In this document: positions 1 to 20,545 of the stretch, piece by piece | Position numbering within the stretch: the stretch's first letter is position 1 | Layout: every line of letters starts with the position of its first letter | From: Rhodococcus sp. JCM 9791 | Lineage (GTDB): Bacteria; Actinomycetota; Actinomycetes; Mycobacteriales; Mycobacteriaceae | Direction: 5' to 3' | DNA length: 64,000 nt | Assembly (NCBI GenBank): GCA_001312645.1 | Contig: BBEG01000001.1 | Span: 1-64,000 of the forward strand | Notes under the pieces: model-generated | What the model saw: the letters and a program-made list of their open reading frames with translations, nothing else | Databases searched by the model: none | What the model was told of the DNA's origin: nothing | Position numbers and translations under genes: made by a program

Positions 1-171
1 TGTCGGTCCCGGCGTCGTCGTCCCACGATCCGTTCGCAGCTCCCTCGGGACAACCGACCTTCGGCGCGCCCCCGCCGTTCACCGGAAACCCGGGACCCCG
101 CCTTCGGGGCCCCGACTTCGGGACCACCGCCGGGGCAACCTTTCGACCCGTTCCGGCCGCCGGGTTCCTGA
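1..171 (+). CDS. C-terminal tail of an upstream gene (partial, proline/glycine-rich)
   Basis: Only the last ~55 residues are in the window. They form a low-complexity tail with repeated DPF, FGAP and PPP elements ending in FDPFRPPGS and a TGA at 169-171. The first ~90 bases read this way in one frame and the rest in another, so one indel near base 90 is implied. Such tails are typical of disordered linkers or termini. The gene ends about 40 bases before the tubulin-like start and is probably part of the same operon. The function cannot be told from this fragment. Confidence 0.5.
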   Translation, partial: CRSRRRRPTIRSQLPRDNRPSARPRRSPETRDPAFGAPTSGPPPGQPFDPFRPPGS

Positions 172-213: not shown

Positions 214-3200
214 ATGAGGCGATTTCTCGTAATAGGTTGCGGCGGATCCGGCGCTGTCACCCTCGCGTACATGATGGATCAACTCCGGTCCGACCTTGCC
301 GCCGTGGGTGTCGACAAGATTCCCGGCGGCTGGCAGTTCGTCAGCGTCGACGTGCCGACCGCTCCCGAAGCCGGACCCGACGGACTCGGAAACGTCCGGG
401 ATCAGGGCGGCTACTACTTCGGCAGCGGACCGCAGGGTGATTCGTACGCGGTGCTCGACAATGCGTTGAGCAACCAACTCGGCGCGCGCAACAGCCTCGA
501 CGAGATCGGCACCTGGGCTCCGCGGGATCCGTCTGCCGTGACCGTCCCGATCGGTCGGGCGCCGGCCAGTACCGTGCGCTCGGCCGCATGATCACCTTGA
601 GCAAGGCCGGCGGCATCCGCGACACGTTGCAGCACGCGTGGGACCAGCTGTTCACGGTGCAGACCGCCAGCGAGATGTCGGCTCTGAAGATCCCCGGCAG
701 TGGGAGTTTCGAGCAGGAGGAGTCGCCCGTCGTCCTGGTGGTGTCGTCGATGGCCGGTGGTGCCGGTGCGTCGATGGCCCTGGATGTGTGCCGGATCCTG
801 ACCCTCATCCGAAGCTCGACCCGCGGCTCATGGGTGTGTTCATGGTTGCCCCCGACATCTTCGACGGGCTCGGCCGCAGCGCGACCACAGGTGTGCGCGC
901 CAACGCACTCGCGATGCTCGGGAGATCGTCGCGAGCCAGCTCGGGTCGGCCCGCGAGCACGACGTCGAGACTTTGCGTGCTCTCGGCCAGCAGAGCGGGA
1001 CGGGGGAGAAGGTGCCGTTCGCGCGGGTGTTCCCCGTCGGCCGCCGCGTCGGCGTCGAAGGTGCACCGTTCGGTGACGGCTCCCAGAAGGCGATCTATCG
1101 AGCATGGCCCGCGGTCTCGCCGGCATGATGATGAGCGGCGCCGCGACCCGCCAGTTCGTGCAGTACGACCTGACGAACGGTGCCGGGTTGTCCGGTCAGC
1201 GCGACAACATCGGCTGGGGCGGGCAGTGGGACAACCTGCCGTGGGGAACGTACGGTTTCTCGAGCCTGAGTATGGGACGCGACCGGTATGCCGAGTACTC
1301 GGCGCAGCGTCTGGCCCGGAGCACCGTCGACCGTTTGCTCGACGGCCACCGCAATCCCGCGAACGTGGCGTCGGACGACGATCAGGTCAACGCGATTCTC
1401 GACAGTCAATGGCAGACGTTGCTCCACACCATGGGATTGCCTGTGGTGCATGCGGATCCGCGCGGCGCCCAGGTCGGTGTCGGGCCGTGGCTCACCCAGG
1501 TGGTGTTGCCGTCGGACGACGGGTTGCGCATGTCACGGCAGATCGTGGAGAACGAACTGCGCGGCTACCTTCCTTCGGGCGGCGGGCTCAGTGCGTCGCA
1601 GTGGGTGCCCGAGATCAACCGGGCCCTCGCGTCGCGTCGTCAGGCGCTTGCGACGTCGGCGGAGCAGCACGCGCTCGGGCATGCCTTCCAATGGCATCGG
1701 CAACTCGGTGGTCGAATCGAGCAGGCGGTGTCGAAGGCGATCTCCGATCTGGGCCTGCCGTACGCGACGGCGCTGGTGAACCGGTTGTCCGTCCTCGTCA
1801 AGGATCAGGTCCGGGCCGGCGCCGACGAACTGTCGAAGCAGGGCCCTGCGGACATCACCGCCCAGTCTGCCGAGACCGCCAGATGTTGGGGGCACTGAAA
1901 GGCAATATCGAGAGCGACGCCGACATCCTCGAACGTGTCATCTCGAGCTGCAGCCAGAATGTGTACCGGCAGCTGTATGCGTCGTTGTCCGGCAAGGTCT
2001 CCGAGGTCGCGGCGGCGCTGGTGCCCGAGATCCTCAAGCCGCTGCTCGATGCGCTCAACGAATCGCAGACTGCGCTGCGGAAGGCGCGGGCCAAGCCTGC
2101 GAGCGACGTCGGCCTGGCCCGGTTGTCCACCGACCAGTACGGCGCGTGGCCCGCGGACAAGAGCGACCGCGTCCCGAAGCGGTTCGCGGAGGCCAACAAC
2201 GAGGTGATGCTCACGCCGTCGGCCGACTTCATGGACCAGTACAGGACGGACCTTCCGTTGGCGGTGTCGTCGGACGGTCCGGGGACACCGCCGTTCGAGG
2301 CCGCAGTCCACAGTGCGGTCGCCGATGTGGTGACCGGTGTCTGGTCGACCATCGACGGCAGCAGGCCCCCGGGCGACGAGCATCCCCTGCTCGAGCGCAC
2401 CTCGGCGTGGCGTACCCGTGCGTTCCCGTTCGATCCGGGAACCGCGAGGCGCTCGTCCCGTCCGCCGGACGCTACGACGTCCATGTGCGTCCCCACGAGC
2501 TGCTCGAGCGGGCACGTCAATTCGTGGCCCGCACCGGGGAGTCGTTCGACAGGTTCTGCCGGGTGTCGCTGCGCGAATACATCGAGGACATCACGGTCCC
2601 CGAGTACGCGCTCGACGAGCGCCGTGAGCGTCTGCGGTCGAAGTTCGTCGAGGCCTTGTCGCTGGCGCGTCCCCTGGCCAGCGTGAATCAGCAGGCGCTC
2701 GAAGCCCTGCATCCGGGCCAGCAGATCGAGTACCGCTACAAGTTCACGTCGATCCCGTTCCTCAATCTTCCGGTGGCGGATTCGCTGTCGCAGGTGCTGC
2801 AGAAGAACACGATGATCGACCACGAGACGCGCGCCGAGTTCGCGAGATTGCTGACCGAGGAAGACAAGCTCACCCGCATCGACATCTTCGGCTCGTACCC
2901 GAACTACTCTCCTTTGGCATACGATTCGGTGCTCACTCCGGCAGCGAAGCAGTGGGCGGATTCGACTCCGGCGCAACAGGAAGCGTTCTGGCAGTGGCGC
3001 CGCTCGCGCCCGTTGGCGGCGTCGTTGCCGATGCACGAGAGTGAACGTCGGGCCATGGCGGCCGGGTGGTTCCTCGGTCTGGTGGTGGGCCGTCTGCGTC
3101 TCCCGCCCGAACCGTACGACGAGCCGGTGCGGGTGTGGGATTCCGGAACCTCGACATGGGTGGACTTCCCGAATCCGCTGCTCACCCCGCCGGCCCGCTT

Positions 3201-3782
3201 CCTCGCCAACAACGACTGGTTGCCCGCGGTCCTCGAATCGGTGTTGCTGGCGATGGCGCGGTCGCACGAGTCGCCGGTGATGAGCTCGATGTTGCCGTAT
3301 CGCGCACTGCGTGCGATCTACGACGCTCCGCGGAGAAACCGGCGAGCGGCATCCTCGAGGTGTCGGCGAAGTCGGTGCTCACCGACTGGCTGCGCACCGG
3401 AAACACCGCGACGGGCTGGCAGTCGCAGGTCGCCGAGACCGGTGCGGGGATTCCGATCGACGTGCGAGCGAAGAACGCGATCACCTGGCTGTCCAGTGTC
3501 CGCGATCTGACCGGTCAGCACTATCTGGCGCCGGGCCACGACGGCGCCCCGGGTGGTGGCGTCTTCTCGACCATCACGGTGCGCGAACAAGCGTCCCAGA
3601 CGCCGATCTACCGCGACATCGCCCCCGACGTGCATTGGGCCACAGGGGAACTCATAGAGCTGATCCAGGAGTGCGCAGTGCGCGCGGAGCAACCCGACCG
3701 TCCCGAATTCGACAAGCAGACCTCGAACGCACCGACACCCACAGCACAGACGTTCCAGATCCCGAACATGGGGCAGTTCTGA
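214..3782 (+). CDS. Tubulin-like NTPase of a GAP1/GTPase conflict-type operon (multiple frameshifts)
   Basis: A ~1190-residue protein. The ATG at 214 follows GGAAGGACC and gives FLVIGCGGSGAVT, a glycine-rich nucleotide-binding start. About residue 185 there is SSMAGGAGASM, which fits the tubulin/FtsZ signature loop (GGGTG type). The remaining ~900 residues are a long alpha-helical extension, matching the large tubulin-like proteins of actinobacteria rather than FtsZ (~400 aa). The reading frame switches near 555, 812, 918, 1100, 1885, 2440 and 3335, yet sequence character continues across every switch without nonsense codons, so sequencing error is likelier than decay. Its TGA overlaps the next ATG (TGATG). 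Inference: it forms a nucleotide-dependent polymer or sensor that works with the downstream GTPase and GAP1. Family membership is probable; the role is predicted only. Confidence 0.75.
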
Positions 3783-6508
3783 TGGCAGCGCGCGGCACAC
3801 AGATTCTGACGGTGTTCGTGGCCACGCCGGGTCCCGCCGAGGGGGTCCGGGATGTGCTGCGGGATCTGTCCGCAGCCGAGCTCGTCGGCTCGTACGTGTG
3901 GATCGACGACACCCGGGTCGACGCCCCCGGCACTCGCATACCGGCCGTGGAAACCGATCGGGGTGTCGACCATGTCGTCGCCCTCCAGGATCTTCTCGCC
4001 TCGCGTCACTACGACCTGGTGCGACTGTGTGTGCTGGTGCCCAGCGGCGCGACCGCGGTGCCGGTGCGACTCGAGACGGAGACCATGTTCGCCGACCTGC
4101 TGTCGTCGAACTCCGGTGGTGCACGGAGCGTTCGGATGCGTGTGCTGCTGCGACGCCCAGCGGATGCGCATGCGGTGTCGGCTGTTCCGGCGCTCGCCGG
4201 TTGGCACAACCTGATGGTGGCACCCGAAGATTCGCGGGGACCCGGCATGGGCCACGAGTCGCTGAAGCTGACCACCGATCCGATCGACGTCGGACGCAGG
4301 CCGCGCCCGTCATCGCGGGCATCACCGGCCTGTGGACCGACGACGACCACACCCCGTTCGACGAACTTCCCGTCCTGCCCGGCAGCTCCCTGCGCGTGGT
4401 GCGCTCCTTCTACCGTCGCTCGACACGTCCCACGCCGAACACCGATTGCACTCGGAACTCCTGGATTTCGACGGGCAGCTCCCACTCCCACGCGACGCCG
4501 GGACCGCTGTCCTGTACGTCGACGACGTGCCGACGGCCACCCGGCAGATGGCGCAGGCGCTGTGGACGAAACACGGGCATCTGCTGACCAGCGCCCGAAT
4601 ACCGACGCCCCGGAAGCGGGAACCGCGCCACATCCGGTTCCGCGACGCGCTACGCATGTTCGGCCGGTTCCTCGCCGCCGTCCTCACCAACGCGCCGTCC
4701 CGACTGATCGGCCGCGCGGAGAACCGGGCCTCGGCATCGCTGGCCGCCAAGACGCAACGCGCTCTGTTCGGTGGCTCGCAGAGCGCGTACCGCGTAGTGG
4801 TCGGTGGGGTCGATGCGGACGGTCATCGTGCCGGATGGGGCGAGTACGAATCGGCGTCGCGAGAGATCGGTGCTGTGCTCGACGGCGGCAAGAACGCTCC
4901 GCACGCCGCAGCACCCGACCTGTCCGCGCTGTGGCGCGACTATTCGCGGGCCGCGCTGACCCTGGCGGATGCCAGCGAACGATCAGCGGGACTACCACCT
5001 GTCCAGGTGGGCGCGCACCGCGCTGTGCTGCGCTCGGCGTCGGACATCGTGCCCGGCCCGGGCGAGGATTTCACCGACATCCCGGGCGTGGTGTCCGCAA
5101 CCACGTCGACGCACGTCATCGAAGCACCCGACATCCTCGGGGTCGACGAATTCGGCCGCCGACTGCGGGAACTCGAACAGGATCCGGTGATCGGGTTGGA
5201 CGCGCGCCGCACCGGCGCCGCGATCAAGAGTTGGCGAGAGCGCACCCGGGCGAGCTTCGCGGTCGGCTTCGGTTCGATCCTCACCGACCGGCTCGCGGCC
5301 GACGTGTCCGAGGCCGGCAGACTGCTCGAACGGTTGAAGAGCGCCGAAGCGCTGCGGGATCCGGCAGAGGAGAGCGCCGAAGTGCACAAGCGGATGTTCC
5401 GCAAGGTGCACATCGCAGGTGTGGTTGCGGTGGTGATCGCCGTCATCGCGGGTCTGCTGGCGTGGCAGGAGATCATCTCCTGGTGGGCCGGCGGCACCGT
5501 CATCGCGCTGTGCCTGCTGGGGTGGGCGATCGCGCTGACGGTGATCTGCTGGAGGTCGCAGCAGAACCTCGAGGAGCTACTCGTCGAACGCGAACGGACG
5601 ACCGCCGCCCACGAGGCCGACCGCACCAACCTGCGTCTGACACTGCGTGAGATCGAGGTGCTCACCGGCGCTACCGTCAATACCTGTCGTGGAGCAGAGC
5701 ACTCGGAGCATTCCTGGCGAAGCCGCTCGGTGTGGCAGAGCATGTCCTCACCGCACGCAGACGCATCGAATGGGGTCTGCCGCGACACAGCGCCATCGGT
5801 TCGGGAATCCCCGCCGACGACACCGTGGCACGTGTCGCCGACGAGCTCCGTCAGGATCTGTTCACCGTCGGATGGCTCACCGAACCGTGGGACACCGTCG
5901 CGCGCGGCGCCGGAGCCGCTCTCGGTGGGTCGGCACAGGACATCGACCGCGATCCGAGCCTGCTCGCCGTGAAGGCCGGTGCGGGATCGGGTTCTCCGCT
6001 CGACGAGTGGTCGCTGCTGTTCCACCGAGGTCAGGTGCGGTCGAGCGGCGCGACGATGCTGTGGAATCGGGCAATGGCCGAACTCACCGGCCCACGAACC
6101 GAGCTCGCGCGAGAGCTCGTCGGTGTGGTCGAATACCGGGTCGACGGTGAGGTCCAGCACGCCGGCGTCGACGATTTTCTGGCCGGAGTCGGGATGCCCA
6201 CGGAAGCGGGGTTCTTCGACCGGGCCGCGTTCAGCGACACCGCGACCATGCGAGGCACGTCCGCAGTGGCGGGAGAGGTGCTCTCGCGTACGAGGGTGGG
6301 ATGCGGGCTCGTGGCCGTGACCACCCAGTTCACCGAAGGCATTTCGGGTGAAGACCTGGCACAGCCGCCCGCGAAGCACGCCGCTGCGGTCGAGGTCACG
6401 CACGTGCCGGACATCGAGTTGCGTCCCGCACAGCCCGAGGACACTCGGGTCGGGCGTGCGGGCAACGGTGCGTATGTGGCTCCGGCCATCGACGGCCTCG
6501 AGTTCTGA
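3782..6508 (+). CDS. Membrane protein of the tubulin-like/GAP1 operon, unknown function (frameshifts)
   Basis: I do not recognise a named domain. The ~908-residue product starts at the ATG overlapping the tubulin-like stop. Its N-terminal ~170 residues alternate strands and helices (TVFVATPGPAEGV, then VRLCVLVPSG) and look like a small globular alpha/beta domain. Around residues 540-600 there are two hydrophobic segments, VVAVVIAVIAGLLAW and TVIALCLLGWAIALTVICW, which would make a membrane hairpin. A helical charged stretch follows them. The C-terminal ~270 residues are soluble. Frame changes occur near 4290, 4430 and 5670. It is the only obviously membrane-embedded member of the operon, so it may anchor the complex at the cell membrane. 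This role is inferred from position and topology only. Confidence 0.6.
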
Positions 6509-6522
6509 GAGCGAGGGGTTCA

Positions 6523-8529
6523 GTGTCCGAAGGTGTCTTCGAAGCGTTACAGCGGTGGCGACAGGGCGAGGTCGACGCGTCGCGGTTGCGGCCGGGCCTG
6601 ATCAAAGACACGCACCTGCAGCAGATCATCCGATCGAATCGGCGAACGGTCGACGAGATCGAACCGATGTTGCCGCGGCACGCCAAAGCGCTCGTCGGCG
6701 GTATCGTCGAAGTCCTGGCAGCCACGGAGGAAACTGCTCCGGAGGGCGTCTCCACGTCGAAACACGCGGCGGTCGAGCCGGAGCCGGTCCCCGAGCCGGT
6801 GGAACCGTTACCGGGCAGCGAATTGCTGGTGGATCTGCACACCGAGGATTTCTGCGAGTTCCTGCACGGGGAATCCGAGTACGAAGTCGGTCCGATGGCC
6901 ATCGCCCCGGAACCGCGTGGCGGGCACCGGCTGGAATGGACCGGACTGCCCGAGAGCCCCGGCACGACCGTGCTGTACCGGGTGGTGTCCGGTGAAACCC
7001 ACCGCGCCTACAAGCCCGAGGCAGGCCGGCTTGTCGGCGTCACCCGCGGCACGCTGATCGTCGACACGGCGCCGTCGGCTGCCGCCGTGCGCTACCTGCA
7101 GGTGTGGGCGCACATCGGGAACAACGAACGCGACGCGGCCGAGCGCCAACCGGTCCTGGTGGCCGAAGGGCACCTGCTGAGCGCGGTGGACGGGTTCGTC
7201 GTCATCGAGGACGACGGCACCGTCATCGGCCAGTGGTCGGTGTGGCCCGGAGTGTCGCGAGTGCGGGTACTGCGGATCCCACTCGACGGACGATCACCCG
7301 TCACCAACGACCCCCGGCACCGCATCCTCGCCGACCAGCCGAATTTCGGCGGCTTCGTCGATCGCGACGCCCAACGTGGACACCGTTACCTGTACCGGGC
7401 GATCTGCGAGGTGGAGGTGGACGGCCACACCCGCCTGTCTCCGGCCGCGCAGTCGGAGGTTCTGGTGTCCGCTGTGCTCGAACCGGTGTCGGATCTGCAG
7501 ATCACCACGTACGGGCAGGGCGACGATCTCCACTTCGACCTCGGCTGGACCCCACCGGACATCGGCGCGGTCGTCATGTACCGCACCGAAACCGCACCTC
7601 GCGCCGGTATCGACCGCACCCTCCTGGAAGCAAGTGCGCTCGACGTCTCCGGCGGCCTCCCGGAATCGGCGCGACTCGTTCACCCCGTGGTGGTCGAACA
7701 GGGCGGCCGACACGCCATGACCACCGTGTCGTGGCCGAGAGGGTGGGTGCGCGCGTACTTCACACCGGTGACGATGCTCGACGGTCAGGTTCAGGTGGGG
7801 CGCACCGTCATCGCGACCCGGCCGCTTCCGGCACTGACCGGTGTCCGGATCGTCGAGAGGTGCTCCGAGCAAGTGGTGACCTTCCCGTGGCCGGACGGGG
7901 CGGCGTCCGTGTCCGTGTACGTCAGCGCGCCCCAGGTTCCGGCGGAGCATGCCATCGAACAGCGACCGGTCGCGGAGATCTCACGATCGCAGTACGAGCG
8001 GGACGGTGGCCTGCACCTGACGGACCAACTCGCCGCGCAGGGTTGTGCGGTGCATGTGGTCGCGATCGCCTACACCCGCGGTGAGCGCATCGTGGGCATT
8101 CCGGCGACCGTCGACTATCCGGGCCTACTGCGCATCCAGTACACGGTCACGCCGCGCATCACACTCGGTGGTGGCGTCGTTCTCGCGATACAACTCGCAT
8201 CCGAGATCGAACTGACCACGGCACCGCCCTTCGTCGTCATCCACAACCTCACCCGGTTGCCGCTGAGCGCGAGGGACGGACAACCCTTGGAGGTCCGCGG
8301 AGGAGTCGGCACCCATCCGGGCGCGCGTAACTTCCATCCGAAAGGACTTCGGCGCGAATGGGGACAGCCATGGCTGGTCGACGTCGGCGACACCGACACG
8401 GGATTCGTGCGAGTGTTCCCCGACGTGCGTCCCGAACAGGCATGCACCATCGCGCTGCTCGACCCGCCGATCGAACAGATCGACCTCCGCCTCATCGATC
8501 GGACACCGATCGATGACCCGGTGGAATGA
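6523..8529 (+). CDS. Fibronectin type III-like beta-sandwich protein of the GAP1 operon
   Basis: An intact 668-residue reading frame. The GTG at 6523 is preceded by GAGCGAGGGG, 14 bases after the previous stop. Residues 1-65 are helical (EALQRWRQGEV, then LPRHAKALVGGIVEVL). After an acidic/proline linker come several ~90-residue beta-rich units with FnIII-like features: LEWTGLPESPGTTVLYRVV, then HRYLYRAICEVEVDG, then VSDLQITTYG with LGWTPPDIGAVVMYR. No signal peptide or membrane segment is visible, so it is probably cytoplasmic, which is unusual for FnIII repeats. In such operons it may be a scaffold or recognition module. The TGA lies inside the next gene, a 17-base overlap. The FnIII assignment is by eye and tentative. 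Confidence 0.6.
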   Translation: MSEGVFEALQRWRQGEVDASRLRPGLIKDTHLQQIIRSNRRTVDEIEPMLPRHAKALVGGIVEVLAATEETAPEGVSTSKHAAVEPEPVPEPVEPLPGSELLVDLHTEDFCEFLHGESEYEVGPMAIAPEPRGGHRLEWTGLPESPGTTVLYRVVSGETHRAYKPEAGRLVGVTRGTLIVDTAPSAAAVRYLQVWAHIGNNERDAAERQPVLVAEGHLLSAVDGFVVIEDDGTVIGQWSVWPGVSRVRVLRIPLDGRSPVTNDPRHRILADQPNFGGFVDRDAQRGHRYLYRAICEVEVDGHTRLSPAAQSEVLVSAVLEPVSDLQITTYGQGDDLHFDLGWTPPDIGAVVMYRTETAPRAGIDRTLLEASALDVSGGLPESARLVHPVVVEQGGRHAMTTVSWPRGWVRAYFTPVTMLDGQVQVGRTVIATRPLPALTGVRIVERCSEQVVTFPWPDGAASVSVYVSAPQVPAEHAIEQRPVAEISRSQYERDGGLHLTDQLAAQGCAVHVVAIAYTRGERIVGIPATVDYPGLLRIQYTVTPRITLGGGVVLAIQLASEIELTTAPPFVVIHNLTRLPLSARDGQPLEVRGGVGTHPGARNFHPKGLRREWGQPWLVDVGDTDTGFVRVFPDVRPEQACTIALLDPPIEQIDLRLIDRTPIDDPVE

Positions 8530-11274
8530 CGTGACCGCCGACGACGCCGACCGTCCACGGTTCGGCCAGCTCTCCTACACCTCCTTCGACCGCCCCGGGG
8601 GCGCAGGGGGCGGTGGCTGGCAGGTCAAACAGACAATCGGAGGACTCGACGCGGGCGAGGAAGAACGACTACGGGAAGGGGTCGTGACGCGGTTCGAATC
8701 GGTTCCCCCGATCCCGCGGTTCCCGAACGCCGACGAGGTGCGCCGCCGCCCCCGCCGACTGATGTATGCGCCGGGGACAGGCACGACAGGTTTCTACTGG
8801 CACACGGTCCCGGCCGGCGCCGATGCCTCCGGAAGACCCGGCAACGTCTTCGCCCACGCGCTCCTCGACCGGCGTACCGATTCCGCAGACATCACGCGAC
8901 CGATCGAACGATGGGGCGCGCGCGAATGGCTCACGCCCTACGGCTCGGAAGATGTTGCCACCGCGGAATTCTCGAGATTCGATCCTGCGCCGAGCGGCCG
9001 CACCTCCCGCGACGCCACCTTGGGATTCCTCCTCGACCCGACCACCTGGCGTATCGGCATCTTCAGCGTCCTGCTCGACGCCGTCGCTCGGGCATTGAAC
9101 CGTGGCTCTCCCGTCGTTCTCGGCTGCGCAGACCCGGACAACGCGGCCCACTGGATCGCTGCGGTCTCCCATTTCATGTCGCCGGGAACCAGCCGATGTT
9201 TCGGATGGTCGACCTTCGATCGACTCCACACCGTCGCCGACGCCGTCGCCCGCGGCGCGCACCTGGTCGCGGTGCCACTCGAAGATCTTCCGGGTGACAC
9301 ACCCGGATGCGTCGTATTCGGCGAGAACGAATCGACCGATCTCGGCGAGCTCGACGGGGAACCACACTGCGTCGACAACGGCGATATGGTGCCCGTGACC
9401 CCGTGGTCGCTGATGGCACAGACCGTTCTCGTCGACGAATCGGTTGCCGCACGCACCCTGGGCCTGCAGGACGAGATAGCGACCAAGGTGGGCGACCACC
9501 GACTGTCCCCGATGTGGCCGCTGGCGATGGCGGTGGTGGCGGACAGCACCCTGCACGACTCGCTGGACGAAGCGACGACGGTGCTCCTGGAACAGAGCCC
9601 CGACGCGGTGACCGAATCGGAATTCGCGTCGTTGATCGTCGACGTCGTCGACAGAAACCTCGGCGACACCGTCGACGAAGCCGCCCGTGCGCTGGGCCGA
9701 TGGCACGAGGACGACGGCCTCGCTCCCGTGGTGCGCAGCCTCGCCGGCCGAGTGTTCGCATACCGGGTCTTCCACGATCGCGCATGGTTCCGGAACGCCC
9801 AGCCGTCGCAGCGCGTGTTGCTCGAATACTGCGACCGGACAACCGAGCTCGTCATGGAAGCCGATCGTCTTCTCCGCGAACTGCGCGCACGCGCACATTC
9901 GGCACAGCGGATCGATGACGTTGCGGCCGAAGCGCTCTGCACACTCGATGCGCTCATCCGAGCGGATCTCGTGAGCAGACACGGTGAAGATCAGGTCTTC
10001 GAAATCCTCGAACTCGTCGTCGTGCCGGTGCTGTGCGACCCGACTGCAGGCCGGCAACTCGTCGCTGTGGTCGGAGCGGTGGGGGAGAGCACATGCACCG
10101 ACTACCTGCAGCCGGCCGTGATCACACACCCTGATTTCCTTGCGCGGCCGATCGGTGCGCGACTCGACAACTCCGTGTTCACGTGGCTGGCGAGCAGCCT
10201 CACCGGAGTTCCCACCTTCGACGAGTTCGCAGCGGATCCATCCATGACGACCACACCGCAGAGCGTGATCATCGCCGAAGGAGTGTTCTCCCTCGCCGCA
10301 CAGGGAGAAGCGCGCGAGTGCGCCCCGAGCTGGCCGCCGTCGCGCTGTGGCGCGCGTTCTTCGAACTCGACGAAGGGGCAGGGCCGATCCGCGAGCTGGA
10401 CACCCTCGTCGACTCGCCGCAGTGGTCTGCCGCGCAATGGTGCCGAGTAGTCGAAACCCATCGGCGAGTGGTCGCTCCGCGCTTCCTGCAGGACGCCGTG
10501 GTGGGTGAGCCGTGGAGCTCGGAGGTCGAGATGCTTGCCCGGCACATTCTGCACCTCCTCGACAACGACCGTTCGGTGTCGTGGCCGCAGGATCCGCGTC
10601 ATGACGCACTCGCCGGGGCATGGGCGTCGATTCGGCTGCGGAACAGCTGGAACGGGATCGGAGACCGCGATCTGGACCGCGACCTCGGCCGGTGCGGCCT
10701 ACCGGCCATCGCTGATTACGCCCGACACTACGACGCTGGTCTGCCCGATGATGTCCTTGCAGGACTGGCCGTGTTCATCGTGGCAGCGAAGGCCCGCTCG
10801 ATAGAGATTCCCGCACTACCGCCGAAGCATGTGGACGCACTGGCCGACGCCGTCGACCTCAACGCAGGATTCGTCGTCGACTCGCTTGTCGCCCTCGCGC
10901 AATCCGGTGCAGTAGAAGAACAGTGGGTCATCGCCTACGCCGTGTTGAGTTCACCCGACGCTCCCGACGTGGCTCGGGTGATCGACTCCCTCGGTGTGCT
11001 GGCGCATTTCGTCGTGGGGCGTGGCTCCGAGGCCGGATCCGCGCGGCGCGGGCTTCTCGACGAGGTCGCCACCGAGATCCTGCCGGAGCCGTGGAACCTC
11101 GGCCCCCGGGATCTTCGCGGGGTCCACGCGGCCGTGCGCGCCGAACTCATGGAATTCCGCGACCGCGGTGTCGACAGGGCCCGCGACGCCTATGCCGCGT
11201 TCGTCGAGTGGTGGTACGACCAGCGGCTCTCCGACGCAGAACACGCACTTTCCAGGCCGAGAGGACAGATCTGA
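8513..11274 (+). CDS. GTPase-associated protein 1 (GAP1), first copy
   Basis: A ~920-residue protein with the layout of the GAP1 family: an N-terminal type 2 domain beginning FGQLSYTSFDRPG, a middle domain (WYST-type segment FGWSTFDRLH and VVFGENES), and a helical C-terminal domain. It starts at the ATG at 8513, or possibly the GTG at 8531, inside the end of the FnIII-like gene. One frame change near 10308 joins the two halves; the second copy at 17817 reads through the equivalent site with GEGARVR. The stop overlaps the next ATG (ATGA). Family descriptions link GAP1 to double-GTPase partners in predicted NTP-dependent conflict systems. The exact biochemical role is unknown. The paralogue is about three quarters identical by eye. 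Confidence 0.8.
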
Positions 11275-12301
11275 TGCCCGGTTACGTACTCGATGGTGCC
11301 GGTCGGGTGGAGCTATCGCGACAACCCCTCGCGATCACGGTGACCGCGCTCGACGTGCCGGTGACGGTACGCGCGATCACCGCAGACGGTGCAGACGCCC
11401 CGTCGGTGCTGTACCCGAAACCCGGCTTCGTGGTGCTCCCGCGCGTCGACGCGGAAGTCGTCGTCGTGGCGACACCGGGCCACGATCTGGGCTTCCCCCA
11501 GGGAACCGTGCTCCAGGCCACCGTCGCTGTCGACAGCAGCCACAGCCTCGACCCCGACCGTGCCGAGCTCACCCCACTCGACGTGTCGGGGCTACACCAC
11601 GTCGAACTCGCCACGATCACACCGGTCGGTCAGCGGCTCGCCGTGGCCGCACGGAAGACTGCCGTCGACGTTCCCCTCACCGACCTCGGTGCCCGGGCAC
11701 GATCGCTGCGCGCGGGGCGCTCGGCGTCGACCGGTTGCCCGAACGCCGCCAGGTACGGGTCGAGGTGGACGTCGACACCACGATGTCGATGCTTCCACTC
11801 ATCGAGGACGGCAGCATCCGTGACGTCGTCGACCTGCTCACCGGTGTCGCCGCGGTCATCGGACGTCGAGAAGAACTGCATGTCAACCTCATCGGCCGCG
11901 ACGTGACCGCAGTGCACATCGGTGAACTGCGGGGCGCGGCTGCAGCCGCGCAGAAGGCGCTCGACTCCGCGGGATTGGGTATCGGGTTCCGCTCGGCAAC
12001 AGTGGATCGATCCCGCTACATCGAGCCGACGCTCGTTCTCACCGTCACCGACGGCGTACCGGCAGATCACGCTGCCGCCGTCGCAGGGGTTCGCAGACGT
12101 CCGATCGTCCTTCAGGTCGGTGGGGCGGCGGCCGAGATCGAGCAGATGGGGAGTGTCGAGCGGAGGCGGACTTCGGTGGTCCCGGCAGCTGGCCATGCTC
12201 TCGCGGGTCGTGGTTGGCTGGACGACCCTCAGGAACTGTTCCGGACGGTGAAGTCGCTCGTGTCGGGTCTGCCGACCACGGAGTCGGAAGGTGCCCTGTG
12301 A
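11274..12301 (+). CDS. von Willebrand factor A-like domain protein
   Basis: A ~342-residue protein coupled to GAP1 by an ATGA overlap. The N-terminal ~130 residues are beta-rich without a recognised domain. The second half looks like a vWA fold: VEVDVDTTMSM is a plausible MIDAS strand (a DxTxS variant of DxSxS), followed by helices and LVLTVTDGVP, which matches the typical TDG strand. One indel near 11715, in a G-rich run, separates the halves. vWA domains commonly act as metal-dependent adaptors beside NTPases, and this one sits directly before the GTPase gene. I infer it bridges GTPase and GAP1. The vWA call rests on two motifs. Confidence 0.6.
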
Positions 12302-13462
12302 TGACGAAATGCCCACGGTGTTTCACGGTATTGTCTGCGGACCGGACTGCATGGGTGCCGACCGCGCCGGCAGAAGTGGAGCCCGACCAGGTCGCCACCG
12401 CATATCAGGGCACGCCCGTGCGCTCCGGGAAGGTCGTGCACCTCGACCGTCCGGCCGGTGCCGCCGATGAGTGGGCGCCGGTGCCGATGTGGTCGAGGAG
12501 AAGGCAGGCGGGCCCGCCGCCGAGGTGTGCACGACATGCCACTACCGACTCCCCTCGGGGTTGCGGGGCTCGCAGACCACGTGCATCGCAATGGCCGGTG
12601 CCGTGCAACGGGAAAGACCGTCTATATCGCAGTCCTCGTCAAGACGCTGCAGTTGTTGGGGGAGCGTCTCAATTGCGTGGTGGAGCCGGCGACCGCCGAA
12701 ACCGAGATGGTGTACCGGGAGCTGTACGAAAAGCCGCTGTACGAAGAGCGCGGCATCCTCGAATCCACGCCCGCCGCCCACACGAGCAATCAGTATCAGC
12801 GGGAACCGCTGATCTTCTCGCTCGGCACCTGGAAGGGGCGACGACAGTACCTCGTGCTGCGCGATGTGGCAGGGGAGGACCTGGAGAACCCCAATAACGT
12901 TCACGTGCAGCACATGCGGTTCTTCGCGCAGGCCGACGGAGTGGTGTTCATGTTCGATCCACTCAAGGTCGAATCCGTGCGGCAGCAACTGCACGATCTC
13001 GTTCCGGTTCAGGAGCGAGTGGGTGGTGATCCACGTTCGGTGCTGCGGACGGTGCTGTCGATCATCGGAGATTCCACTCCGAACCTCGCCGTCGTCTTGT
13101 CGAAGTTCGATGCGCTGCAGTCACTTCACCACGTCGAAGGTAGCGGCTGGAGCGAGGTGATGGCGCAGCGAGGAGCAGCCTTCTCCCGCGACCCGAGCCT
13201 CCAGTACGCGCCGTACAACGAGGTCGACGGGCGGCTGCTGCACGAGGAAGTGCGGAGTCTGCTCGACAAACTCGAGGCCAAGTCGATGGTGATGGCGGTG
13301 GATCAGCCGCACACCGGCACCGTGTTGAAAAACAGGTTCTTTGCCGTCTCTGCGCTCGGCGAATCGCCTGTCGGGGATCGGCTTCACCACAACGGGATTT
13401 CACCGTTCCGGTGCCTCGATCCCGTGCGGTGGGTGCTCGCTCAGCGGGGTGTGTGGGTGTAG
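12301..13462 (+). CDS. Zinc-ribbon plus TRAFAC-like GTPase (double-GTPase 2 type)
   Basis: A ~386-residue protein whose ATG overlaps the vWA stop. It begins with CPRC (residues 4-7), and a second pair, CTTC, lies at about residue 80, so an N-terminal zinc ribbon is likely. A P-loop of the GxxxxGKT form (GARATGKT) follows at about residue 105, then LRDVAGED (G3-like) near 186 and VLSKFDA (G4-like, SKFD for NKxD) near 265. This set fits the double-GTPase 2 group found with GAP1. Frame changes near 12480 and 12590 fall in the linker and just before the P-loop. It is the last gene of the operon; a 113-base gap follows. Inference: the nucleotide switch that drives the GAP1 complex. Confidence 0.7.
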
Positions 13463-13512
13463 TCCGATCGAACGACATTTGGGATGTAACACCCGAACAT
13501 GCGTGCCGATGA

Positions 13513-13558
13513 GTGTGTAGACGTACTTGTCGTATCAAATACTCTCTACACGTGTGTT
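13513..13558 (+). promoter_or_regulatory. AT-richer spacer with a 7-bp inverted repeat upstream of the lipoprotein gene
   Basis: GTGTAGA at 13515-13521 is repeated inverted as TCTACAC at 13545-13551, within a locally AT-rich stretch (TCGTATCAAATACTC). It lies between the GTPase stop and the lipoprotein start, where a promoter would be expected. No convincing -35/-10 pair can be assigned. Confidence 0.25.
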
Positions 13559-13575
13559 TTTGAAGGGAATCGAAT

Positions 13576-14124
13576 ATGTCGTGGGTTCTGGGCTCGGGTA
13601 TGTCGCGACGCATCGGTATGACGAGTGGACGACGCACTGTCGCGACAATTCTGACGATCGCGGGGTTGGTGACGGGACTGTCGGCTTGCGGCTCGGACGC
13701 GGAGACGGGTTCCGCCGCAACATCTGAGGCGACGTCGTCGGCGCAGCCGTCTACCTCCTCGGCAACTCGGACTTCGTCAGCATCATCAACGACAGTGCCG
13801 ACGAGCACGACGACGGAATTGCCTGTATCGACAGATGTGGTCAAAGCCGCACCGGCGCCGGTTGTCACCTCCTCGACTGCACCGGTTGTGACTTCGGTCC
13901 CGATGCCGAATGTCGTATGTATGAATCTTCAGGATGCGCAAGATCTGATTCAAGCGCTGGGTGTGTTCTATTCGCGGAGTTCGGATGCGACAGGTAAGGG
14001 ACGGAATCAAGTGCTCGACGCGAACTGGGTTGTAGTCGGCCAGAACCCGGATGCAGGCGTTCCGATCAGTGAAGGTGATGCAGTTCTTTCGGTAGTCAAG
14101 ATCGGCGAAACGAACGCATGCTGA
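13576..14124 (+). CDS. Secreted lipoprotein with a C-terminal PASTA-like domain
   Basis: A 182-residue protein. The ATG at 13576 follows GAAGGGAATCG. The N-terminus is a lipoprotein signal: RRIGMTSGRR, a hydrophobic core, then the lipobox LSAC. An in-frame ATG at 13600 or 13618 is an alternative start giving a more usual signal length. After the lipidation cysteine comes a Ser/Thr/Pro-rich linker of ~80 residues (SSAQPSTSSATRTSSASSTT type), then a ~65-residue module, NLQDAQDLIQALGVF to GDAVLSVVKIG, which resembles a PASTA repeat with its VVxQNPxAGxxIxxGDxV pattern. PASTA domains bind cell-wall fragments or beta-lactams in other proteins. It is a single gene with no clear partner. Confidence 0.65.
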   Translation: MSWVLGSGMSRRIGMTSGRRTVATILTIAGLVTGLSACGSDAETGSAATSEATSSAQPSTSSATRTSSASSTTVPTSTTTELPVSTDVVKAAPAPVVTSSTAPVVTSVPMPNVVCMNLQDAQDLIQALGVFYSRSSDATGKGRNQVLDANWVVVGQNPDAGVPISEGDAVLSVVKIGETNAC

Positions 14125-14206
14125 CACCGTGAATATCCTGGTTCAACGGTCGTCGCCGGGCACTCACCGCATCACCGGGAGGACTGCGCTGTTGGACCGC
14201 CAGAGG

Positions 14207-14512: not shown

Positions 14513-14516
14513 TCGA

Positions 14517-15602: not shown

Positions 15603-15765
15603 GTGTCGCCGAGCTATGAAAACCCCTGGATATCGCCTGGTCCGGGCGTGGTGTTACACAAGTCGATTCGGCCGTGACCTGCATTCCGCGCTGTCGGTGA
15701 GGTCCGGTAAGAATGTCGGTCATGTCGGTTTTCCATCCCGACGCGGAAGACATCAGGAGGTCGAC

Positions 15766-17585
15766 GTGATCGATACGCGCGGACATGCGAACGGGCCTGC
15801 GACCCTGCCTCGTGGGCACCGCTGGGTGGTCGTCGACGTCGAGACGTCGGGTCTGCGTCCCAATGCGCACCGAGTGCTCAGCGTCGCAGCGTTGTCGCTG
15901 CGTGAAGACGGTTCCGTCGAACGCGAGTTCTCCACCCTCGTCAATGCCGACTGCGACCCCGGCCCGGTGCACATCCACAACCTGACGCGCGAGCGGCTCG
16001 CCGACGCGCCCCGCTTCACGGATATCGCCGGCGACCTCGCCGACATACTCGACGGCGGCGTGCTCGTCGCACACAACGCGTCGTTCGACTACGGATTCCT
16101 CGACGCCGAGTTCCGGCGGGCGGGCAGGTCGATTCCGGCCGGCCAGCGGCTCTGCACTCTGGCGTTGTCGCGGCGTCTGGAACTCGATGTCCCCAACTTT
16201 CAACTGTCGACCCTCGCCCAGCACTGGCAGGTCCAGCAGTTGCAGGCACACGACGCGTACGACGACGCACGCGTGCTCTCCGAGGTGTTCGTGCGCAGCG
16301 CCACCATGGCCGAGAGCCTGCAGCTGCCCTTGCCCGTGGTGAACTGCCGCAGCCGGAAGTCGGTGTACCCCGATTCGGTGCAGCGAGTGCCGTGCCAGTG
16401 GAAGAACCCGGGTCGCCTCACCGAGGCGGGGCTCGTCCAGGGCATGAAGGTGGTGATCAGTGGGTCCACCGACACTCCGCGGCTGACGTTGGCCGGGCGG
16501 CTGACGGAAGCAGGGCTCGACGTACTCAACAGCGCGAGTCGCCAGACCAGCGTCGTCGTCTGCAACGATGTCGCCGTGCAGACCGCCAAGGTGCGCAAGG
16601 CCATGGCCGAGCATTCCCGTCATCACCGAACAGCAGCTCGAAGCGCTGCTGGAACGAGTGGTGGCCGGCGAGCCCAAGGTGGCGACGGTGATCGACGTCG
16701 TCCCGCAGCAGGAAACCCCGGTGACGACGGCGACGCCCACGGCGGAGCCGCAGAGCTGGGCGCTCCAGGGCAAGAAGCCCAAGTTGTGGTCGGGGCGTCG
16801 AGTCCTCCTGCTGGGCGGCACCCACCTCGAAGCGGTCATGATGCGCTCCCGCATCGCGCAGCTCGGCGCCCGACCGTCCATCAACTTCACGGCCGCTGTC
16901 ACCGACGCACTCGTACTCGAGGCGCCGACGCGGACAAGCGGATGACGCGGGTCAACGATCGTCGGCTGCCGGTACTCACCGCGGACGACGTGAATGCGGC
17001 GATCGAGAAGGGCGTCGTCCCCGCGCACATGCGCACCGAATCCCGCCTGGCGGCCCCGGTGCTCTCCCAGGGCGAAGTGATCGACCTTCCGGCGAAGACC
17101 GAGCGGTGGTCGGTCAACATTGCTGGAAGGCCGAAGCTGTCGGAGACGAATTCGACGTCGACATCGTCGCGTTCTTACTCGACAGTAATGAAAGAGTCGA
17201 CACCGACGACGATTTCGTCTTCTACAACAACCCCGCTTACGACGACGGCGTGGTCGAGTTGACCATGGACGGCAGCAGCGAACAGTCCATCCGCGTCGAC
17301 CTCGCCTCGATTCCGGACGACTGCGAGCGCATCGCGATCGCGGCGGCGATCGACGGAGACCGCACCTTCGGCGACCTCGGCGCGGTCTCCATCAGCGTGG
17401 ACAGTGAGGCGGGCACTGCCGCCACCGCGGTACTCGACGCAGGCACCACCGAGCGCACCATGGTGCTCGCCGAGATCTACCGACGGTCCGGGAAGTGGAG
17501 GTTGCGGTCGGTGGGGCAGGGGTACGACGACGACCTCGCCGCGCTCGCAGTGCGATACGGCGTGGACGTGGACGGTATCGACTGA
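15766..17585 (+). CDS. Exonuclease-BRCT-BRCT-TerD fusion protein (frameshifts)
   Basis: A ~606-residue protein. The GTG at 15766 follows a strong CAGGAGG. Residues 20-185 are a DnaQ-like 3'-5' exonuclease with all DEDDh motifs: VVDVETSGL, LVAHNASFDYGF and AHDAYDDARV. Two BRCT-like units follow: GMKVVISGSTDTPRL about residue 230 and GRRVLLLGGTHLEAV about residue 340. The last ~150 residues are a TerD domain: FDVDIVAFLLD, then ERIAIAAAIDG, and WRLRSVGQGYDDDLAALA. Frame changes lie near 16605, 16935 and 17115. TerD proteins belong to calcium-binding, membrane-associated stress networks that often include DNA-processing modules; fusing one to a nuclease places the two activities in one chain. The next complete gene is the second GAP1 copy. 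Confidence 0.75.
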
Positions 17586-17773: not shown

Positions 17774-17816
17774 TTGACGCTTCGTGCGACTCGGATCGGC
17801 GAGTCGGCAGAGCGTC

Positions 17817-20545
17817 GTGACTCCCGTTGCCGACCACCCGAGGTTCGGTCAGCTCACCTACACCTCGTTCGACCGCCCCGGCACTGCCGGCGGCGGCGGT
17901 TGGCAGATCAAGCAGACCACCGGCGACATCGACGCGGACGAAGCGGAAAGACTGCTCGCCGGCGTCGTGACGCGGTTCGAAGAAGTTCAGCCGATTCCCC
18001 GGTTCCCGACTGCCGAAGAAGTGGAGAACCGACCCCGTCGATTGATGTATGTACCGGGAACAGGCAACTCGGGTCTGTACTGGCACACCGTTCCATCCGG
18101 CGCAGGATCCTCCGGGTGGTTCGGAAACGTGTTCGCCCACGCACTACTCGACCGGCACGCCGATGCGGCAGACACCCCGCGGCCGATCGAACGATGGCGC
18201 TCGCCCGAGTGGCTCACGCCGTACGGACCCCGCGACGTCGCTGCCGCGATCCTCTCGTCTCCCGAACCCCGGCCGAGTGATGTCGCTTCGCGCGCCGCCA
18301 CCGTCGACTTCCTCCTCGAACCGAACGCATCGCGGATCGGTATCTTCAGCGTCCTGCTCGACGCGGTTGCTCAGGCATTCCGCGGGGGCTCACCCGTCGT
18401 CCTCGGGTGCACGGATTCGGACAGTGCAGCCGGATGGATCGCGGCAGTTTCACACTTCATGTCGCCCGGAACCAGCCGACGCTTCGGATGGTCGACCTTC
18501 GACAGGTTGCACACCGTCGACCACACGGTCGCGCGCGGCGCGCACCTCGTCGCGGTTCCGATCGAGGACCTTCCGGGCGACACCCCAGGTTGCGTCGTGT
18601 TCGGTGAGAACGAATCGCCGGCCCTCGGCGTGCTCGATGGGGAACCGCATTGCGTCGACAACGGCGACCTCGTACCTGTGACCCCTTGGTCGCGGCTGGC
18701 GCAGATCGTCCTCGTCGACGAATCGGTTGCCGCCCGCACCCTGGCGCATCAGGACGAGATCGCGAGGAAAACGGGCGACGACGATCTCTCGCCGATGTGG
18801 CCGCTGGCGATGGCGGTGGTCGCAGACAGCGACCTGCACGACTCGTTGGACGAGGCGACGACGGTCCTGTTCGAACAGAGCCCCTCCACGGCGATGGAGT
18901 CGGAGTTCGCGTCCCTGATCGTCGACGTAGTAGACAGCAGCTTCGGCGACACCGCGGCGCACGCCGCCAGAGTATTCGGCGCGTGGCATGCCGGCGACCG
19001 GCTGGCTCCGGTTGTGCGGACCCTCGCCGGACGAGTCTTTGCATTTCGGGCGTTCCAGGATCGCGCGTGGTTCCGGAACATAGATCCATCGGATCGTGCA
19101 CTGCTCGAATACTGCGATCGGACTCCCGAACTGGTGATGGACGCCGACCGCATACTCGGTGCGCTACGAAGCCGCCTGAATCACCCGTACGAGATCGAAG
19201 ATGTGGCGATCTCGGCACTCCAGGTGCTCGATGCGATCATCCGAGCCGATCTCATGAGCGATGTCGGCCACGAGCTGGCCCTCGAGATCCTCGAACTCGT
19301 GGTGGTGCCGGTGTTGTGCGATGACGCCCGAGGTCCGCAGCTCGTCGCGGAGGTCGGCCCGGTCGGTCGCTCGACGTGCACCGACTACCTGCAGCCCGCA
19401 ATGATCGGCCATTTCGACTTCATCGGCAGACCGCTCGGGTCTCGACTCGAACCTTCCGTGTTGGCGTTCGTTGCGAGCAGCGTGGCCGAAGTGCCCACAT
19501 TCGACGAATTCGCGGCGGATCCGTCCCTGGTGAACACCACCCAGAGCATCATCACCGCTGAAGGTGTCTTCGCTCTCGCCGAACGAGGAGAGGGGGCGCG
19601 GGTGAGGAGTGAGCTGGCCGTCGTCGCCCTGTGGCGCGCGTTCTACGAACTCAACGAAGGCTCGGGGGTGATCCCGGGCCTGGACGACGTCGTCGCCGCC
19701 CAGCAGTGGACGGCTGCCGAGTGGCGTCAGATGGTCCAGACGTATCCGAGTGTGGTTGCCCCGCGCTTCCTTCAGGACGCTGTGGTGTGTGAGCAGTGGA
19801 GCACGGACGTCGAATTGCTCGCGCGTCACATCCTGAACCTCCTGGATCATGCAGGAGTCGCGCCGTGGCAGGAGGATGCACATCACGACGCACTTGCCGG
19901 GGCATGGTCGTTGATTCGGCTGAGGAACAGCTGGGACGGGATCTCCGAGCCGGAACTCGATGAGGATCTCGGGCGGTACGGTCTGCCGACGATCACCGAC
20001 TATGCCCGGCACTACGAAGCGGACCTGCCCGATGACGTGCTCGCCGGTCTCGCGGTGTGCATCGTCGCTGCGAAGCTCGTTCCGCGGTGCTTCCCGCGTT
20101 ACCTCCGAAGCATGTTGCTGCACTTGCCGATGCAGTCGAAGTCAATGCCAGGTTCGTCGTCGACTCGATCGTCGACCTCGCACAGGCCGGTGCTCTGGAC
20201 GAGAACTGGTTGATCTCCTACGCGGTGATGAGCTCGCCCGGCTCCCCGGATGTGGTGCTGGTATCCGAAACGGTCGGTGTTCTGGCGCATTTCGTCGTCG
20301 GATCCGAATCCGATCAGCATGGGATTCTCGACGAGGTCGCCACCGCGATCCTTCCGGAGCCGTGGAACCTCGGCCCACGAGACCTTCGAGGGGTGCAGGC
20401 ATCGCTGAGTGCCGAACTCATGGAGTTCCGCGACCGCACCGTCGACCTGGCCCGCGAAGCGTATGCCGCATTCGTCGAGGGATGGTACGAGCAGCGGGTG
20501 GCCGGGGCGGAGCGCGCAATCTCCAGGCTGCGGGGGCCGTTCTGA
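17817..20545 (+). CDS. GTPase-associated protein 1 (GAP1), second copy
   Basis: A ~909-residue paralogue of the protein at 8513, colinear over its whole length: FGQLTYTSFDRPG, IGIFSVLLDAVAQA, FMSPGTSRRFGWSTFDRLH, VVFGENES and the C-terminal EPWNLGPRDLRGV. The GTG at 17817 (VTPVADHPRFGQL) matches the position of the first copy; a GTG at 17784 is possible. One frame change near 20070 lies at VAAK. Unlike the first copy it has no GTPase, vWA or FnIII neighbour; its companion is the exonuclease-TerD gene upstream. Divergence of roughly one residue in four by eye shows an old duplication that has been kept, so it may pair the same GTPase with a different effector. Function inferred. Confidence 0.8.

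What the first reader, a model, noticed from the sequence alone, without database searches (positions are those of the whole stretch)
214..13462. Tubulin-like/membrane/FnIII/GAP1/vWA/GTPase operon: a candidate conflict or membrane-polymer system
Six genes run head to tail with overlapping or nearly touching ends and include two different NTP-binding folds: a tubulin-like signature (GGAGASM) and a P-loop GTPase (GARATGKT). Around these are a membrane hairpin protein, a cytoplasmic beta-sandwich protein and a vWA-like adaptor. The combination suggests a nucleotide-driven polymer or scaffold that senses an invader or stress at the membrane. No dedicated toxin is visible, so the effector may be the unseen upstream gene, one of these large proteins, or the exonuclease-TerD protein at 15766.
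Basis: partly seen in the sequence, partly recalled or inferred. Interest (0 to 1): 0.8.

Follow-up and report, generated by a model that had tools for sequence, protein, structure and literature searches.

The report
Bacterial tubulin–GTPase switch operon, with twin
This Rhodococcus stretch carries an already described gene set, predicted to build a tubulin-like assembly at the cell membrane under a GTP switch, and new clues suggest that one unexplained protein in it resembles the parts that turn on membrane-traffic switches in our own cells.

Summary
The window, from a frame-broken Rhodococcus draft, carries Tubulin_2, two-TM, FNIII, GAP1-N2/M, vWA-like and DO-GTPase2 genes; the "unseen upstream gene" is a vWA membrane protein. 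Five core genes keep one order in 48 of 48 named loci that hold all five. This is the actinobacterial tubulin theme of the GAP1-N2/DO-GTPase systems of Kaur et al. 2020, so the operon is a new member of a known kind.

New here: (1) A predicted GAP1 structure (pLDDT 89.9) has DENN-domain proteins, two of them crystallised with their Rab, as its three best PDB matches (Z 8.6–8.9), suggesting GAP1 is the exchange factor of its GTPase. This evidence is modest, and sequence comparison gives no support. (2) A second GAP1, derived from a window-like operon, sits behind a DnaQ-BRCT-TerD gene; two other Rhodococcus genomes keep that pair with no tubulin or DO-GTPase found. (3) TerD genes lie near the operon in 14 of 50 tubulin loci (10 of 11 Gordonia, 0 of 21 mycobacterial).

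Frameshifts look like assembly errors: rpoB and rpoC are broken too. No experiment on the system was found in the papers searched. Mechanism remains inference.

The parts
1..171 (+). C-terminal tail of the vWA/FNIII membrane protein (first gene of the operon), cut by the contig end
   Evidence: R. gordoniae 1058-aa and R. aetherivorans 1009-aa proteins match at 18-168 with their last ~55 residues; vWA E 3.6e-5, just under cut-off; two TM segments
214..3782 (+). Tubulin_2 (FtsZl1-like) protein with a long C-terminal region; at least 5 frame pieces
   Evidence: Pfam Tubulin_2 on pieces; intact relative E 3.4e-48 over residues 5-373 of 1191; pieces mapped; T1-like and GGAGASM motifs conserved
3782..6508 (+). 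Membrane protein: alpha/beta N-terminal domain, two adjacent TM segments, long helix; 4 frame pieces
   Evidence: model of R. gordoniae orthologue pLDDT 83.3; residues 4-197 resemble Rab/Ras-type G domains at Z 6.5-7.2 and reductases at similar Z; no P-loop lysine in the window sequence or alignment consensus
6301..8529 (+). FNIII-repeat protein with HRDC-like N-terminus (open frame from 6352; GTG at 6523)
   Evidence: orthologue of R. gordoniae 745-aa protein, 77.5% identity; HRDC sub-threshold E 0.052; FNIII label from Kaur et al., no Pfam hit here
8513..11274 (+). GAP1 (GAP1-N2, GAP1-M, helical C-terminal part), operon copy; predicted DENN-like N-terminal ~400 residues; 2 frame pieces
   Evidence: Pfam; model of the R. 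gordoniae orthologue and PDB comparison
11184..12301 (+). vWA-like (TerF-type) adaptor; 2 frame pieces
   Evidence: vWA-TerF-like E 3.6e-4, below cut-off; DxTxS-type motif in the R. gordoniae orthologue and in the window
12214..13462 (+). DO-GTPase2 with N-terminal zinc-ribbon-like cysteine pairs; 3 frame pieces
   Evidence: Pfam DO-GTPase2 6.5e-08; up to 88% identity to R. gordoniae; cysteine pairs seen
13576..14124 (+). Small PASTA-domain membrane protein or lipoprotein following the operon
   Evidence: orthologues follow the GTPase in R. gordoniae and R. aetherivorans; PASTA E 1.3e-4 just under cut-off in the R. gordoniae protein
15610..17585 (+). DnaQ-like DEDDh exonuclease-BRCT-TerD protein; 4 frame pieces
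   Evidence: RNase_T 3.3e-25, TerD 1.3e-33, BRCT 0.012 (sub-threshold) on window pieces; BRCT over cut-off in the intact relative; in 17 of 18 genus genomes; relative matches PADLOC candidate PDC-S48, best over the nuclease region
17784..20545 (+). Second GAP1-N2 gene (GAP1b), paralogue of the operon copy; 2 frame pieces
   Evidence: PF20013 2.8e-20; its clade is sister to the window's operon copy, 97/95 support; same pair in R. sp. SMB37 and R. sp. HNM0563; pieces

Best explanation
The operon is a member of the actinobacterial tubulin-type GAP1-N2/DO-GTPase systems (identity: about 0.97). Proposed working: the DO-GTPase is a switch kept off; the FNIII and vWA proteins sense or bind a target at the membrane; GAP1, whose first ~400 residues are predicted to fold like a DENN module, acts as the exchange factor or platform that loads the GTPase with GTP; the switched-on GTPase lets the tubulin-like protein assemble on the two-TM membrane protein, remodelling or sealing membrane around an invader or damage. 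Shown here: gene content, conserved order, conserved NTP-binding motifs in relatives, a DENN-like fold match of a predicted model, a TerD link in some lineages. Inferred: sensing, exchange activity, polymer formation, target. The second GAP1 was copied from a window-like operon and now stands behind a DnaQ-BRCT-TerD nuclease gene, perhaps a stripped form with the nuclease as output.
For: Pfam hits on window pieces and intact relatives. Order conserved in 48 of 48 complete loci. Tubulin and DO-GTPase are found in the same 4 of 18 Rhodococcus genomes. Published match: Kaur et al. section 29. GAP1 model pLDDT 89.9; the top 3 of 940 aligned PDB chains are DENND10, DENND1B and DENND1A, the last two in complex with Rab35; the TM-protein model's 50 listed rows contain no DENN protein. 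34 of 36 invariant GAP1 columns lie in residues 16-332, inside the DENN-like part. Orphan pair. TerD link: 57, 94, 100.
Against: DENN: no sequence signal (Pfam with 38 members, 80; PDB profile search, 79; hhalign, 50 of 150 column shuffles reach the observed score). Z 8.9 is only a little above the tool's stated typical best of 7-8 for models without a clear match, and mostly helical models can reach 14; the Foldseek E-value is 0.021. No other DENN structures are in the 50 rows shown. The paper searches showed no phage, GTPase or polymer assay of this system. TerD is absent from 2 of 12 operon-bearing genomes searched and from all 21 mycobacterial tubulin loci as far as their flanks reach, so it is not a core part. 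GAP1b lives without a DO-GTPase in two genomes, which argues against exchange on that GTPase being its only role.
Confidence: 0.45

Rival explanations
1. Envelope-stress or membrane-remodelling machine rather than an anti-invader system: the tubulin, vWA and GTPase proteins reshape or repair membrane in response to chemical or metal stress, with TerD proteins as partners.
For: Makarova and Koonin 2010 (PMC2875224, parts 1-2 of 5 read) propose membrane remodelling for FtsZl1/vWA/GTPase operons. A 2024 psp paper (PMC11237479, one passage seen) mentions DO-GTPase genes in psp operons, predicted to act in membrane-related stress. TerD-domain genes lie in 14 of 50 tubulin loci; in Gordonia araii the only TerD gene found follows the DO-GTPase. 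The vWA adaptor weakly resembles TerF's vWA.
Against: Patchy, accessory distribution (4 of 18 in the genus) and presence on two megaplasmids fit conflict systems well, as do defence-type genes beside some relatives. Most tubulin loci show no TerD in reach.
Confidence: 0.35
2. GAP1 is a passive scaffold or GTPase effector: the DENN-like fold binds the GTPase but does not exchange nucleotide, or the resemblance is only a common arrangement of an alpha/beta pair plus helices.
For: No sequence signal for DENN; modest Z; the bacterial protein TagF, not known to me as an exchange factor, scores Z 7.0; GAP1b persists in two genomes with no DO-GTPase found.
Against: Three DENN entries lead the list and cover the whole module in order, in a protein defined by its link to a small-GTPase-like partner.
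Confidence: 0.5
3. The operon in the window is a decaying pseudogene cluster.
For: At least 11 frame changes between 214 and 13462 (52).
Against: Essential rpoB and rpoC of the same assembly are also split over different frames (52, identified by Pfam in 101); the assembly has 947 contigs and 76% completeness; protein identity of the pieces to intact relatives is 66-96%; codon-phase GC bias persists through the pieces.
Confidence: 0.04

Closest known systems
Actinobacterial tubulin-type GAP1-N2/DO-GTPase systems (Kaur, Burroughs, Iyer, Aravind 2020, PMC7159879)
   Same: Single tubulin with a long extra C-terminal region, membrane-bound vWA protein, HRDC-like FNIII protein, GAP1-N2, DO-GTPase2 with zinc-ribbon-like cysteines
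   Different: A text search of the paper finds no DENN, longin or roadblock, no BRCT or exonuclease, and one TerD mention, in another system; so no GAP1 paired with a DnaQ-BRCT-TerD gene is described in the main text. Supplements and figures were not readable
FtsZl1 family operons (Makarova and Koonin 2010, PMC2875224)
   Same: Divergent tubulin/FtsZ family member with vWA and P-loop GTPase neighbours
   Different: Their wider set includes OmpA and kinase genes; TerD or tellurite is not mentioned in the text
DENN-module Rab exchange factors (DENND1A, DENND1B) and DENND10
   Same: Predicted N-terminal ~400 residues of GAP1 align along the whole module, Z 8.6-8.9; secondary-structure order of GAP1-N2 fits a longin domain (longin order recalled)
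   Different: No detectable sequence similarity; GAP1 has a further ~500-residue helical part; exchange activity untested
Ter (TerD/TerF) stress systems
   Same: TerD neighbours in several genera, weakly TerF-like vWA adaptor
   Different: Most loci show no TerD; no TerD gene lies between the operon's core genes in the loci examined

Membership tests
Tubulin-type GAP1-N2/DO-GTPase system | GAP1 with GAP1-N2 and GAP1-M domains | tested here: met
   GAP1-N2 3.4e-21, GAP1-M 6.2e-10 on the window piece, over cut-off
Tubulin-type GAP1-N2/DO-GTPase system | Cognate DO-GTPase with zinc ribbons | tested here: met
   DO-GTPase2 6.5e-08, 33 bits against 27; cysteine pairs in window and R. gordoniae by eye
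Tubulin-type GAP1-N2/DO-GTPase system | Single tubulin gene with helical C-terminal domain | tested here: met
   Tubulin_2 in window pieces and residues 5-373 of 1191 in the relative; that the rest is helical was not tested
Tubulin-type GAP1-N2/DO-GTPase system | FNIII proteins, one with HRDC, one membrane-bound with vWA | tested here: inconclusive
   HRDC E 0.052 and vWA E 3.6e-5, both under cut-off; vWA over cut-off in relative L015 (34); TM segments present; no FNIII Pfam hit
Tubulin-type GAP1-N2/DO-GTPase system | Mutually exclusive with VMAP ternary systems in actinobacteria | not tested
   -
FtsZl1 / Tubulin_2 | Profile match and nucleotide-binding loops | tested here: met
   Tubulin_2 3.4e-48 in the relative; GGAGASM in 50 of 50, T1-like GCGGSG in 49 of 50 homologues
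DENN module | Longin + DENN + d-DENN fold in this order | tested here: inconclusive
   Predicted model aligns to three DENN structures, Z 8.6-8.9 (75); prediction only
DENN module | DENN sequence profile | tested here: not met
   No DENN model among the 12 families matched by any of 38 members at E 10 (80); hhalign to DENND1A/1B no better than shuffles
DENN module | GDP-GTP exchange on a small GTPase | not testable with these tools
   -
Anti-phage system held in PADLOC | Profile matches of the GAP1-system proteins | tested here: not met
   0 of 8 GAP1-system proteins of relatives hit (7 operon proteins and GAP1b); the ninth protein scanned, exo-BRCT-TerD, hits candidate PDC-S48 and exonuclease models

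The most novel reading that the evidence does not exclude
GAP1 is a bacterial DENN-type exchange factor: its GAP1-N2 and GAP1-M domains correspond to longin and DENN, and it switches on the DO-GTPase that governs a tubulin-family assembly at the membrane, next to a membrane protein with a G-domain-like head. Bacteria would then hold a Rab/DENN-like switch wired to a tubulin, in a system predicted to fight invaders; the GAP1/DnaQ-BRCT-TerD pair would be a reduced form with a nuclease output.
Probability: 0.33. Interest if true: 0.85.

Novelty: new member of a known kind. Interest (0 to 1): 0.5.

Why it matters
DENN proteins are described as exchange factors of eukaryotic membrane traffic, with the longin part derived from prokaryotic relatives (Zhang et al. 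2012, PMC3521125; passages seen, part of the abstract among them). A bacterial protein family with a DENN-like arrangement, nearly always beside a small-GTPase-like switch and often a tubulin, would give a testable biochemical job to a protein of unknown function that Kaur et al. count in 904 organisms, and would bear on where eukaryotic membrane switches came from. The TerD link would tie these systems to the long-puzzling Ter stress genes.

Tried and rejected
Pseudogene reading: rejected because rpoB/rpoC are split too. TM protein as SLATT-type pore effector: only a sub-threshold DUF4231 hit (E 0.047; that DUF4231 is SLATT-like is recalled); its best Foldseek match was a pore-forming toxin chain at E 0.003, probability 0.66 and TM-score 0.18 or less, with chemoreceptor coils also listed, read as long-helix resemblance only. 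DENN by sequence: negative. Other DENN-type chains were not among the 50 rows listed; this excludes nothing. Phage-borne tubulin copies: no match. PADLOC and NCBIfam gave no hit for the eight GAP1-system proteins tested, seven operon proteins and GAP1b. The fair figure is 14 of 50 tubulin loci, Gordonia 10 of 11, Williamsia 2 of 3, Rhodococcus 2 of 8, mycobacteria 0 of 21, Propionibacteriaceae 0 of 5, Antrihabitans and Corynebacterium 0 of 1 each; flanks of a few kb cannot show everything (R. aetherivorans counts as 0 although its DnaQ-BRCT-TerD gene lies 1.6 kb upstream). Rows dropped: GAP1 alignment A2 used 38 of 70 ORFs found, the TM alignment 41 of 46 (near-duplicates and doubtful starts left out).
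Full report
What is there. The window opens at base 1 of a contig in a 6.3-Mb, 947-contig, 76%-complete draft from Rhodococcus (same-genus genomes G014, G001, G015 and G010 reappear with names). Reading frames are broken throughout. Intact proteins of R. gordoniae (L011/L033), R. aetherivorans (L010/L035) and G005 (L014) map onto it in order: tail of a vWA membrane protein (1-171), Tubulin_2 (214-3782), two-TM protein (3782-6508), FNIII/HRDC-like protein (~6301-8529), GAP1 (8513-11274), vWA-like protein (~11184-12301), DO-GTPase2 (12214-13462), PASTA protein (13576-14124). The breaks look technical: rpoB and rpoC of the same assembly are split over different frames as well (domains identified). 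In R. gordoniae the operon genes touch or overlap (1651-5226, 5228-7957, 7750-9984, 9986-12715, 12622-13731, 13641-14894).

Conservation. A genome-contig scan returned 75 loci with a GAP1 relative. By tblastn, 50 of 75 hold a tubulin homologue, 70 of 75 a DO-GTPase, and 48 hold tubulin, TM, FNIII, GAP1 and GTPase together; all 48 have the same order: Rhodococcus 8, mycobacteria 20, Gordonia 10, Propionibacteriaceae 5, Williamsia 3, Antrihabitans 1, Corynebacterium 1. Of the five loci without a DO-GTPase match, three end close after GAP1 (L045, L102, L050) and two have ample flank, L034 and L037, discussed below. Within Rhodococcus the operon is accessory: tubulin in 4 of 18 genomes, DO-GTPase in the same 4 of 18, GAP1-N2 in 6 of 18. 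Tubulin_2 is in 14 of 298 genomes drawn from the order. Of the twelve regions I fetched from these, L133, L135 and L139 keep the operon order, L136 and L137 hold a rearranged version, L138 shows only the vWA, tubulin and TM genes, and six (L128-L132, L134, all of one family) show no GAP1 or GTPase match. Two Rhodococcus megaplasmids carry the operon; no phage record matches the tubulin.

What it is. Kaur et al. 2020 (PMC7159879; section 29 and part 1 of section 35 read, passages elsewhere) describe this: actinobacterial GAP1-N2 systems with one tubulin fused to a helical domain, an HRDC-FNIII protein, a membrane-bound vWA/FNIII protein and a DO-GTPase. They infer a GTPase switch, sensing by FNIII domains, GAP1 as coordinator, and multimeric tubulin effectors. 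Makarova and Koonin 2010 (PMC2875224, parts 1-2 of 5 read) earlier tied FtsZl1 tubulins, vWA proteins and GTPases to membrane remodelling.

New point 1, GAP1 fold. AlphaFold2 on R. gordoniae GAP1, in an alignment of 38 sequences, gave pLDDT 89.9. Of 940 PDB chains aligned, the three best are DENND10 (8p0v, Z 8.9, 271 residues, rmsd 5.8, model 5-406), DENND1B with Rab35 (3tw8, Z 8.6, 268) and DENND1A with Rab35 (6ekk, Z 8.6, 261); rank 7 is the bacterial protein TagF (9t0n, Z 7.0, 244); most other rows are helical-repeat proteins matching model residues ~350-600. Foldseek alone ranks DENND10 29th (prob 0.96, E 0.021). DENN modules are longin, DENN, d-DENN and serve as Rab exchange factors (PMC3521125, passages). 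GAP1 too is tripartite and is defined by its partner GTPase; 34 of its 36 invariant columns lie in residues 16-332. Against: no DENN family among the Pfam matches of 38 members, no DENN in the PDB sequence search, hhalign to two DENN sequences no better than shuffles (50 of 150 reach it), and Z near 9 is only a little above what models without a clear match reach (7-8; up to 14 for mostly helical ones). I take a shared fold as more likely than not and exchange activity as about one in three.

New point 2, membrane protein. Its model (pLDDT 83.3) has an alpha/beta head (4-197) to which a good number of Rab/Ras-type G domains align at Z 6.5-7.2, alongside reductases at similar Z; no P-loop lysine is seen in its sequence or consensus. 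It may be a nucleotide-free G-domain relative, or simply a common alpha/beta fold. Two TM segments and an 80-residue helix follow.

New point 3, the twin. Downstream lie a DnaQ-BRCT-TerD gene (15610-17585) and a second GAP1 (17784-20545). The DnaQ-BRCT-TerD gene is found nearly whole, in one or several pieces, in 17 of 18 Rhodococcus genomes; G003 shows only partial hits, the best to the TerD part. What follows it varies: GAP1 in 3 (window, SMB37, HNM0563), a NERD/SF1-helicase gene in 3 (all three scanned), a rhodanese gene in 3 (two of three scanned). In SMB37 and HNM0563 (G001, G010) no tubulin and no relative of the operon's DO-GTPase was found in the genome, so that GAP1 stands without its usual partner. 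In a 41-row tree of the first ~640 residues the second GAP1s form one clade whose sister is the window's operon GAP1 (97/95), so they appear to stem from a window-like operon. In the four operon-bearing genomes of the genus set the DnaQ-BRCT-TerD gene lies within about 2 kb (window, R. aetherivorans) or 20-21 kb (R. gordoniae, G005) of the operon; the last two may share this by descent.

New point 4, TerD link. Hits to the TerD part of that protein lie in 14 of 50 tubulin loci: Gordonia 10 of 11, Williamsia 2 of 3, Rhodococcus 2 of 8, mycobacteria 0 of 21, Propionibacteriaceae 0 of 5, others 0 of 2. In Gordonia araii the single TerD gene found in the genome is the next gene called after the DO-GTPase (L095). 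In G. spumicola and G. malaquae TerD genes stand on both sides of the operon on one contig (read). Both plasmid copies have TerD genes about 2 and 4.6 kb downstream. Two of the twelve chosen genomes have the operon but no TerD match at all, so TerD is an optional partner.

Mechanism. Most likely a GTP-gated assembly at the membrane, with GAP1 loading or docking the GTPase, FNIII and vWA proteins binding targets, and the tubulin as structural output. Steps shown: content, order, motifs, fold match of a prediction. Steps inferred: sensing, exchange, polymer, target. Whether it answers invaders or envelope stress is open.

Verdict. A new member of a known kind, worth attention chiefly because GAP1's predicted fold makes its unknown role testable.

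Noticed in passing
L036 15291-18871: In R. tukisamuensis a Z1-domain gene and a DUF4420 (PD-(D/E)XK) gene follow the DO-GTPase, suggesting a defence-type neighbourhood.
   Followed up: no
L041 14571-16650, L077 16458-17567: In two mycobacterial tubulin loci scanned, genes with PknH-type extracellular domains follow the DO-GTPase, where Gordonia has TerD.
   Followed up: partly
L018, L028, L029, L032: Large SF1 helicase proteins of one cluster lie downstream of the DnaQ-BRCT-TerD gene in three loci and upstream of a paralogue in L032; the one scanned whole (L018) carries an MTES_1575 nuclease domain, and L028, cut by the locus end, shows its start.
   Followed up: partly
L014 9874-12247: An IS21-type transposase pair interrupts the operon between FNIII and GAP1 in G005.
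   Followed up: no
L128-L132, L134: Tubulin_2 genes of another family in the order lie in contexts without a GAP1 or DO-GTPase match, an unexamined second kind.
   Followed up: no
L039: MAG contig titled Rhodococcus whose lineage label in the tree says Cyanobacteriota, perhaps a mislabelled bin.
   Followed up: no
L051, L053-L056, L062 and other mycobacterial loci: A second mycobacterial layout has FNIII, GAP1 and DO-GTPase but no tubulin match in the locus.
   Followed up: no
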